64,000 nucleotides of DNA from Anaerobranca gottschalkii DSM 13577 (GTDB taxonomy: Bacteria; Bacillota; Proteinivoracia; Proteinivoracales; Proteinivoracaceae): positions 1-64,000 of the forward strand of contig NZ_FOIF01000007.1 of the NCBI RefSeq assembly GCF_900111575.1, in the 5' to 3' direction. Within the stretch, counting starts at the first letter, position 1, and every line of letters begins with the position of its first letter. Shown one piece after another: positions 26,276-49,064 of the stretch. Position numbers and translations under genes: made by a program. Below the pieces are notes generated by a model. The model did no database searches. It saw only the letters and a list, made by a program, of their open reading frames with translations, and was not told the origin of the DNA.

Positions 26276-26301
26276 AGCCATAATCTATGAAAATTATGGC
26301 T
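26276..26301 (-). terminator. Distal copy of the duplicated terminator hairpin (left repeat of element copy A)
   Basis: Arms AGCCATAAT and ATTATGGCT with an 8-nt loop, followed on the minus strand by a T6 run. It is a perfect 26-bp direct copy of 26573-26598 on the other side of the 271-bp element, and keeps the T tract of the original terminator of the FtsH-like gene. Confidence 0.85.
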
Positions 26302-26572
26302 CAGGTTGTAGACAAAGTCATTTTTTAAAGGCTGTGGTAATTAAACAATCTTACAAAGTTCTGCGTCGAGATTTAAGGCTTCTATCTAAAAGGAAGAAGG
26401 GTACCGCTCTAATTCGCCGTCCATGGCTCAATAGAGCTTTCGGAACGTCCTGTTCCTCACCCCTTCTTCCTTTTATCTAATCAGCTCTTAAATCTATCTC
26501 CTCGACTTAATCGTATCTTTGTTTAATTACCACAGCTAATGGTGACTTTGTCTATAGTTTGTCTTCAGTCTG
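26302..26572 (+). mobile_element. 271-bp non-coding palindromic element, copy A
   Basis: Begins CAG and ends CTG, with no ORF for a transposase. It folds back along its length: TAGACAAAGTCA (26309-26320) pairs with 26543-26554; a perfect 17-bp arm 26331-26347 with 26520-26536; AGATTTAAG (26369-26377) with 26487-26495; a 15-bp arm 26387-26401 with 26461-26475. The centre holds two small hairpins (GCTCTA/TAGAGC and GGAAC/GTTCC). Copy B has the same length and differs at about nine positions by my count. Direct repeats of 26 bp flank it. It resembles a MITE or a bcr-like mobile structured repeat. It fills most of the gap between cinA and the FtsH-like gene. Confidence 0.9.
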
Positions 26573-26598
26573 AGCCATAATCTATGAAAATTATGGCT
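26573..26598 (-). terminator. Proximal copy of the duplicated terminator hairpin (right repeat of element copy A)
   Basis: Identical in sequence to 26276-26301. It lies 16 bp after the FtsH-like gene stop, but is now followed by the element, not by a T tract. Confidence 0.85.
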
Positions 26599-48745: not shown

Positions 48746-48769
48746 AAAAAACGCCATCAGGCGTTTTTA
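48746..48769 (-). terminator. Distal copy of the duplicated terminator hairpin (left repeat of element copy B)
   Basis: Perfect hairpin AAAAACGCC/GGCGTTTTT in the minus-strand reading, followed by a T8 tract. It is a 21/24 direct copy of 49041-49064 across the element, and the only one with a T tract. Confidence 0.85.
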
Positions 48770-49040
48770 CAGACTGAAAACAAACTATAGACAAAGTCAT
48801 CATCAGCTGTGGTAATTAAACAAAGATACGATTAAGTTGAGGAGATAGATTTAAGAGCTGATTAGATAAAAGGAAGAAGGGGTGAGGAACAGGACGTTCC
48901 GAAAGCTCTATTGAGCCATGGACGGCGAATTAGAGCGGTACCCTTCTTCCTTTTAGATAGAAGCCTTAAATCTCGACGTAGAACTTTGTTAGAATGTTTA
49001 ATTACTACAGCCTTTAAAAAATGACTTTGTCTACAAACTG
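48770..49040 (-). mobile_element. 271-bp non-coding palindromic element, copy B
   Basis: The same element as at 26302-26572, in the opposite orientation, exactly 271 bp, with about nine substitutions and no indels by my count (about 97% identity). It starts CAG and ends CTG on each strand and contains no ORF of note. It fills the gap between the YflT-like gene and dpaA. Direct repeats of 24 bp flank it, each a terminator hairpin. Near-identity of the copies and imperfect flanking repeats suggest fairly recent movement with some decay since. Confidence 0.9.
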
Positions 49041-49064
49041 TAAAAACGACATTAGGCGTTTTTA
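49041..49064 (-). terminator. Proximal, decayed copy of the duplicated terminator hairpin (right repeat of element copy B)
   Basis: The stem now has a C-T mismatch (CGCC against GTCG), and there is no T tract before the element. It overlaps the stop codon of the YflT-like gene. Confidence 0.75.

What the first reader, a model, noticed from the sequence alone, without database searches (positions are those of the whole stretch)
48746..49064. Second copy of the same element, also bracketed by duplicated terminator hairpins (copy B)
Seen: an independent site, opposite orientation, exactly the same 271-bp length, about nine substitutions, and flanking 24-bp repeats (21/24 identical) that again are terminator hairpins, unrelated in sequence to those at copy A. 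The T-tract copy keeps a perfect stem, while the gene-proximal copy has a stem mismatch. This suggests relaxed selection on the proximal copy after the insertion split hairpin from T tract. Two independent cases make terminator targeting much more likely than chance.
Basis: partly seen in the sequence, partly recalled or inferred. Interest (0 to 1): 0.8.

Follow-up and report, generated by a model that had tools for sequence, protein, structure and literature searches.

The report
Mobile element that duplicates terminator hairpins
A 271-base piece of 'jumping' DNA, present about 40 times in this bacterial genome, lands exactly at the foot of the hairpins that end gene transcripts and copies the whole hairpin as it lands, so a terminator with its T tract is kept; it also carries an RNA motif of unknown function.

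Summary
Copy B (48770-49040, +) is 97% identical to copy A (26302-26572, -). About 40 near-complete copies lie in the genome. Of 34 with both flanks readable, 29 sit between two copies of a terminator-like hairpin, a different one at each site. Duplication length (16-31 bp) follows the hairpin edges. In the sister species the same two loci hold one hairpin and no element.

The element is a non-autonomous MITE of an IS1182-family (DDE) insertion sequence. Its ends (CAGACTGAAGACAAA / CAGTTTGTAGACAAA) match those of a truncated IS1182-type element in the same genome and of full-length relatives elsewhere, which also duplicate whole terminator hairpins. The best mechanism is insertion at the 5' feet of an extruded cruciform: 'pathway b' of the IS1272 paper, where the hairpin is replaced instead.

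The element's tip is Rfam TwoAYGGAY, an orphan RNA with two CsrA-like loops; 39 of 40 genomes carrying it have csrA.

Novelty: new variant of a known kind.

The parts
48746..48769 (-). Left copy of the duplicated target hairpin; keeps the T tract (minus strand), probably the working terminator of the 190-aa gene
   Evidence: Direct repeat of 49041-49064, 21/24; terminator call at 48768-48747 (-); single hairpin at the orthologous empty site in G001
48770..49040 (+). Copy B of the 271-bp MITE
   Evidence: 97% identical to copy A; about 40 near-complete copies in the genome
48770..48788 (+). Left terminal tail, CAGACTGAAAACAAACTAT here (usual form CAGACTGAAGACAAACTAT)
   Evidence: Matches the left end CAGACTGAAGACAAAGTC of the IS1182-type element on contig C59 and of relatives
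48789..49032 (+). Long imperfect hairpin AGACAAAGTC...GACTTTGTCT
   Evidence: RNA fold -99.8 kcal/mol, z -10.6
48837..48984 (+). TwoAYGGAY RNA (RF01731) at the tip of the hairpin
   Evidence: cmscan 44.6 bits, gathering score 43
48886..48900 (+). TwoAYGGAY hairpin 1, CsrA-like loop (GGAACAGGACGTTCC); in G002 the landing site of another IS1182 element
   Evidence: motif scan, covariation, IS landings
48913..48928 (+). TwoAYGGAY hairpin 2, CsrA-like loop (GCCATGGACGGC)
49033..49040 (+). Right terminal tail ACAAACTG; reverse complement CAGTTTGTAGACAAAGTC is the second terminal repeat
   Evidence: Same 15-nt end as the Tissierellia MAG IS L245
49041..49064 (-). Right, gene-proximal copy of the target hairpin, one stem mismatch, no T tract; overlaps the stop codon of the 190-aa gene
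26302..26572 (-). Copy A of the same MITE
26276..26301 (-). Target hairpin copy at copy A, with the T tract on the minus strand
   Evidence: single hairpin in G001
26573..26598 (-). Second, identical target hairpin copy at copy A

Best explanation
Copy B is one insertion of a 271-bp non-autonomous transposable element (MITE) moved in trans by an IS1182-family DDE transposase of the subgroup with ends CAGACTGTAGACAAA. Shown: the ends, the copy number, the whole-hairpin duplication, the empty sites, and the same behaviour in autonomous relatives. Inferred: the transposase recognises the structure of a terminator palindrome, most likely an extruded cruciform, and joins the element's 3' ends to the 5' foot of each of the two hairpins. 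Repair of the two gaps then copies the entire stem-loop to both sides. The hairpin next to the upstream gene loses its T tract and the far copy keeps it, so the host gene still has a terminator while the element ends up between the gene and that terminator. The TwoAYGGAY hairpin is cargo that this MITE carries.
For: About 40 near-complete copies plus deletion derivatives. 29/34 sites in G000 and 17/17 in G002 have duplicated hairpins, 16-31 bp, 44/46 flush with the palindrome. Empty orthologous sites with a single hairpin at both window copies. In the same genome an IS1182 transposase fragment (NF033551, E 1.7e-62) starts with CAGACTGAAGACAAAGTC at the 3' foot of a hairpin. Full-length relatives in Thermotalea, Fictibacillus, Ureibacillus, Anaerovibrio, Peribacillus, Fenollaria, Rhodanobacter and others share these ends and whole-hairpin duplications. 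IS1272, of the same family, targets terminator hairpins by structure, and its authors drew whole stem-loop duplication as pathway b (PMC5678879, PMC4923244).
Against: The autonomous partner in this genome is seen only as an N-terminal half (next to an IS3-type sequence, short contig), so a complete active copy was not found. No transposition was observed. Cruciform recognition rests on duplication lengths alone. Five of 34 sites lack a recognisable duplication. In G002, which has the same MITE, no IS with the matching ends was found; the four IS1182 types there have other ends.
Confidence: 0.87

Rival explanations
1. Structure is not needed: the transposase binds the terminator as double-stranded palindromic sequence and cuts with its usual stagger.
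For: IS1182-type elements in G002 with short duplications prefer short palindromes such as RACGTY, so sequence symmetry alone can be read by the family.
Against: Duplication length runs from 16 to 31 bp and follows the stem edges; a fixed-stagger dimer should give one length. Target sequences share no primary sequence.
Confidence: 0.2
2. RNA-mediated insertion: a structured RNA, as with group IIC introns that insert behind terminators, is reverse-spliced or reverse-transcribed at the hairpin.
For: The element is a strongly folded RNA motif, and group IIC introns are known to insert behind terminator hairpins (own knowledge).
Against: Ends match a DDE transposase element, and full autonomous IS copies show the same target rule. 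Inserts occur in both orientations relative to the terminator, 10 vs 13. Rfam finds no intron. Intron homing does not duplicate the target (own knowledge).
Confidence: 0.03
3. The double hairpins are old tandem terminators or products of recombination, and the element marks them by chance.
For: A few sites (L004, L032, L265) have different flanks or hairpins on the two sides, as expected after recombination.
Against: The sister species has one hairpin and no element at both window loci; the duplicated hairpin differs from site to site and is usually identical or nearly identical within a site.
Confidence: 0.02
4. The copies are kept by selection as dispersed CsrA-binding RNAs, and the transposon context is secondary.
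For: The loops match the CsrA consensus on the sense strand, with covarying stems; 39/40 TwoAYGGAY genomes have csrA against 246/358 others, p 1.3e-5; CsrA binding was proposed for this family in PMC4333381.
Against: No bias for sense orientation with respect to the terminator, 10 vs 13; copy B is transcribed antisense by its neighbour; some copies have lost the core (L074, L078). The species association is not corrected for relatedness.
Confidence: 0.12

Closest known systems
IS1272 / TnSha1 (IS1182 family, Staphylococcus; PMC5678879, PMC4923244)
   Same: Same transposase family; targets hairpins, often terminators, by structure and not by sequence; either orientation.
   Different: IS1272 deletes or replaces the hairpin and leaves no duplication; here the whole hairpin is duplicated, cut at the opposite feet.
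TwoAYGGAY RNA (RF01731; Weinberg 2010, PMC2864571)
   Same: Rfam hit above the gathering score; two hairpins with GGA loops.
   Different: Described as a candidate RNA of unknown function; here (and in G002 and G042) it is the tip of a transposable MITE.
IS1202 group (PMC10132070)
   Same: Unusually long target duplications (16-28 bp in that paper).
   Different: Different transposase group and ends (TGT...ACA); no target structure reported there.
Group IIC introns
   Same: Insert behind terminator hairpins (own knowledge).
   Different: RNA mechanism, no target duplication, no intron features here.

Membership tests
IS1182-derived MITE | Multi-copy, no coding capacity, moves as a unit | tested here: met
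   About 40 near-complete 271-bp copies at unrelated sites; empty sites
IS1182-derived MITE | Terminal inverted repeats shared with an autonomous IS1182 element | tested here: met
   CAGACTGAAGACAAA in C59, L243, L244, L245; right end CAGTTTGTAGACAAAG as in L245
IS1182-derived MITE | Same target rule as the autonomous element | tested here: met
   Whole-hairpin duplication in full-length relatives and in Fenollaria copies
IS1182-derived MITE | Intact transposase source in the same genome | tested here: inconclusive
   Only an N-terminal half on contig C59; draft genome, some small contigs masked
IS1182-derived MITE | Mobilised by the transposase in an assay | not testable with these tools
   needs an experiment
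TwoAYGGAY (RF01731) | Covariance model score above gathering cut-off | tested here: met
   44.6 vs 43 bits at copy B; several other copies fall just below it
TwoAYGGAY (RF01731) | Two hairpins with covarying stems and invariant GGA loops | tested here: met
CsrA-binding RNA | Binds CsrA | not testable with these tools
   Motif and co-occurrence only
IS1272-type hairpin replacement | Target hairpin removed, no duplication | tested here: not met
   Hairpin present twice with the element, once without it

The most novel reading that the evidence does not exclude
A terminator-seeking MITE family has taken up a CsrA-binding RNA module and, by duplicating the terminator, places it between a host gene's stop codon and a working terminator. 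Each landing in the sense orientation would then add a CsrA decoy to a 3' UTR, making a genome-wide dispersed CsrA sponge; TwoAYGGAY as a whole would be a mobile-element RNA and not a cis-regulator.
Probability: 0.15. Interest if true: 0.85.

Novelty: new variant of a known kind. Interest (0 to 1): 0.62.

Why it matters
Hairpin-seeking transposition was known mainly from IS1272, which destroys its target. Here a sister group of the same family does the opposite at dozens of sites in several phyla, with duplication length set by the hairpin, which makes cruciform recognition directly testable. It also shows how an element can land in terminators without leaving the host gene unterminated, and gives an orphan Rfam family a concrete context.

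Tried and rejected
IS1202-type long duplications: ends differ. IS91-type element as the mover: it lies beside terminators and its end forms the right tail of some G002 copies, but it does not share the window element's ends. The 1657-bp IS1182 element in G002 as the parent: it has other ends and a 4-bp ACGT duplication, and has landed in the TwoAYGGAY loop in both orientations, so it is a guest and not the parent. Masked small contigs gave nothing. The proximal-copy decay test was negative. Automatic detection of duplications at TwoAYGGAY loci in other genomes failed because folding did not recover the outer hairpin; only L302 was settled, by its ends.

Full report
OBSERVATION. The two copies are real: 26302-26572 and 48770-49040 form one inverted pair of 271 nt with nine substitutions. 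Copy B is flanked by 24-bp repeats, 21/24 identical, each a hairpin; the left copy keeps the T tract on the minus strand and is the only terminator called in the region. The right copy touches the stop codon of the upstream minus-strand gene and has one stem mismatch.

HOW GENERAL. The window lies in a 2.3-Mb draft genome (110 contigs). The element occurs there about 40 times nearly complete at 95-100% identity, with more than a dozen truncated, deleted or contig-end copies. Most copies have their own terminator-like hairpin on both sides. With both flanks readable, 29 of 34 distinct sites are duplicated hairpins; in the related complete genome G002 (same family, other genus, about 79% identical element) it is 17 of 17 once G000 copies are removed from the table. 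Lengths are 16-31 bp and follow the palindrome: 44/46 fold flush from edge to edge against 2.3% of random windows.

EMPTY SITES. In G001, of the same genus and without the element, the orthologous dpaA and cinA neighbourhoods hold a single hairpin at exactly both positions: AAAACGCCAAATGGCGTTTT for copy B and AGCCATAATCTATAAAAATTATGGCT for copy A. So the second hairpin came with the element.

WHAT MOVES IT. The element has tails CAGACTGAAGACAAACTAT and ACAAACTG around a long hairpin. The same genome holds an IS1182-family transposase (N-terminal half; contig C59; NF033551 match E 1.7e-62) whose element begins CAGACTGAAGACAAAGTC directly at the 3' foot of a hairpin. A scan of 84,980 genomes with this protein gave 41 loci. 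Full-length relatives in Bacillota, a Rhodanobacter, a Calditrichales bacterium and an Atribacteria MAG carry the same kind of ends and have whole hairpins duplicated on both sides. In Fenollaria timonensis six of seven copies do so; the seventh has two different hairpins. The Tissierellia MAG element L245 matches both ends of the window MITE; Fictibacillus L247 matches the left end of the G002 version.

MECHANISM. IS1182 family members are known to seek palindromes; IS1272 and TnSha1 enter terminator hairpins and remove them (PMC5678879, PMC4923244). The IS1272 authors drew three outcomes of attack on a cruciform: at the 3' feet the hairpin is lost, at the 5' feet the whole stem-loop is duplicated (their pathway b), at the 5' side of the loop only the loop is duplicated (pathway c). 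The window element and its relatives fit pathway b. In G002 another IS1182 type with ends GAGGGCACTG fits loop duplication in several terminators. The steps at the DNA level remain inferred.

CARGO. The tip of the element is TwoAYGGAY, a candidate RNA of unknown function (PMC2864571) for which CsrA binding was suggested (PMC4333381). I find it in 40 of 398 genomes of the phylum. 39 of these have csrA against 246 of 358 others (not corrected for relatedness). Almost all examples examined carry one or two CAnGGAnG loops in the sense strand, all but one none in the antisense, with covarying stems and fixed loops. A third genus (G042, L302) has TwoAYGGAY in a 264-bp MITE with the same IS1182 ends and a duplicated hairpin. 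Elsewhere the outer ends differ. Orientation relative to the terminator is unbiased, 10 to 13, which speaks against strong selection for transcription of the sense strand.

Terminator targeting: supported. Decay of the proximal copy: the T-tract copy is more stable at 5 sites and less stable at 9, so not supported. The left copy is weaker more often than the right, 18 to 7, p 0.04, without an explanation.

NOVELTY. In the open-access library I found no report of whole stem-loop duplication by IS1182 elements as an observed rule; subscription papers and ISfinder notes could not be checked, and from memory ISfinder lists very variable duplications for this family. I therefore call it a new variant of a known kind.

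Noticed in passing
G002, L147-L159 and L167-L195: A 1657-bp IS1182 element (ends CAGACTGTGTG, 4-bp duplication ACGT) has landed repeatedly, in both orientations, in the first TwoAYGGAY loop; about 13 of 20 copies sit there and the rest at RACGTY-like sites.
   Followed up: partly
G002, L234-L238: Another IS1182 element (ends GAGGGCACTG) lies in the loops of terminator hairpins with about 8 bp of loop duplicated.
   Followed up: partly
G000 contigs C9, C14, C38, C45, C52, C55, C64, C76, C85, C92 (L109-L117, L092, L031): An IS91-family element ends ...CTTTCCTAAGCAA directly beside an A-tract plus hairpin at most sites: a second terminator-adjacent mobile element. The same end forms the right tail of some G002 TwoAYGGAY copies (L118-L120).
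   Followed up: partly
L072 about 2500-2600: Minimal derivative hairpin-19 nt-hairpin, explained by deletion between an 11-bp arm of the element and the same sequence in its target hairpin.
   Followed up: partly
G000 contig ends C9, C15, C17, C23, C31, C33, C42, C48, C56, C78, C82, C90 and others: Many contigs end inside or next to MITE copies, so the element is a main cause of the draft's fragmentation.
   Followed up: no
46 duplicated sites in G000 and G002: The hairpin copy left of the element is weaker than the right one in 18 of 25 unequal pairs (p 0.04), possibly a trace of gap repair.
   Followed up: no
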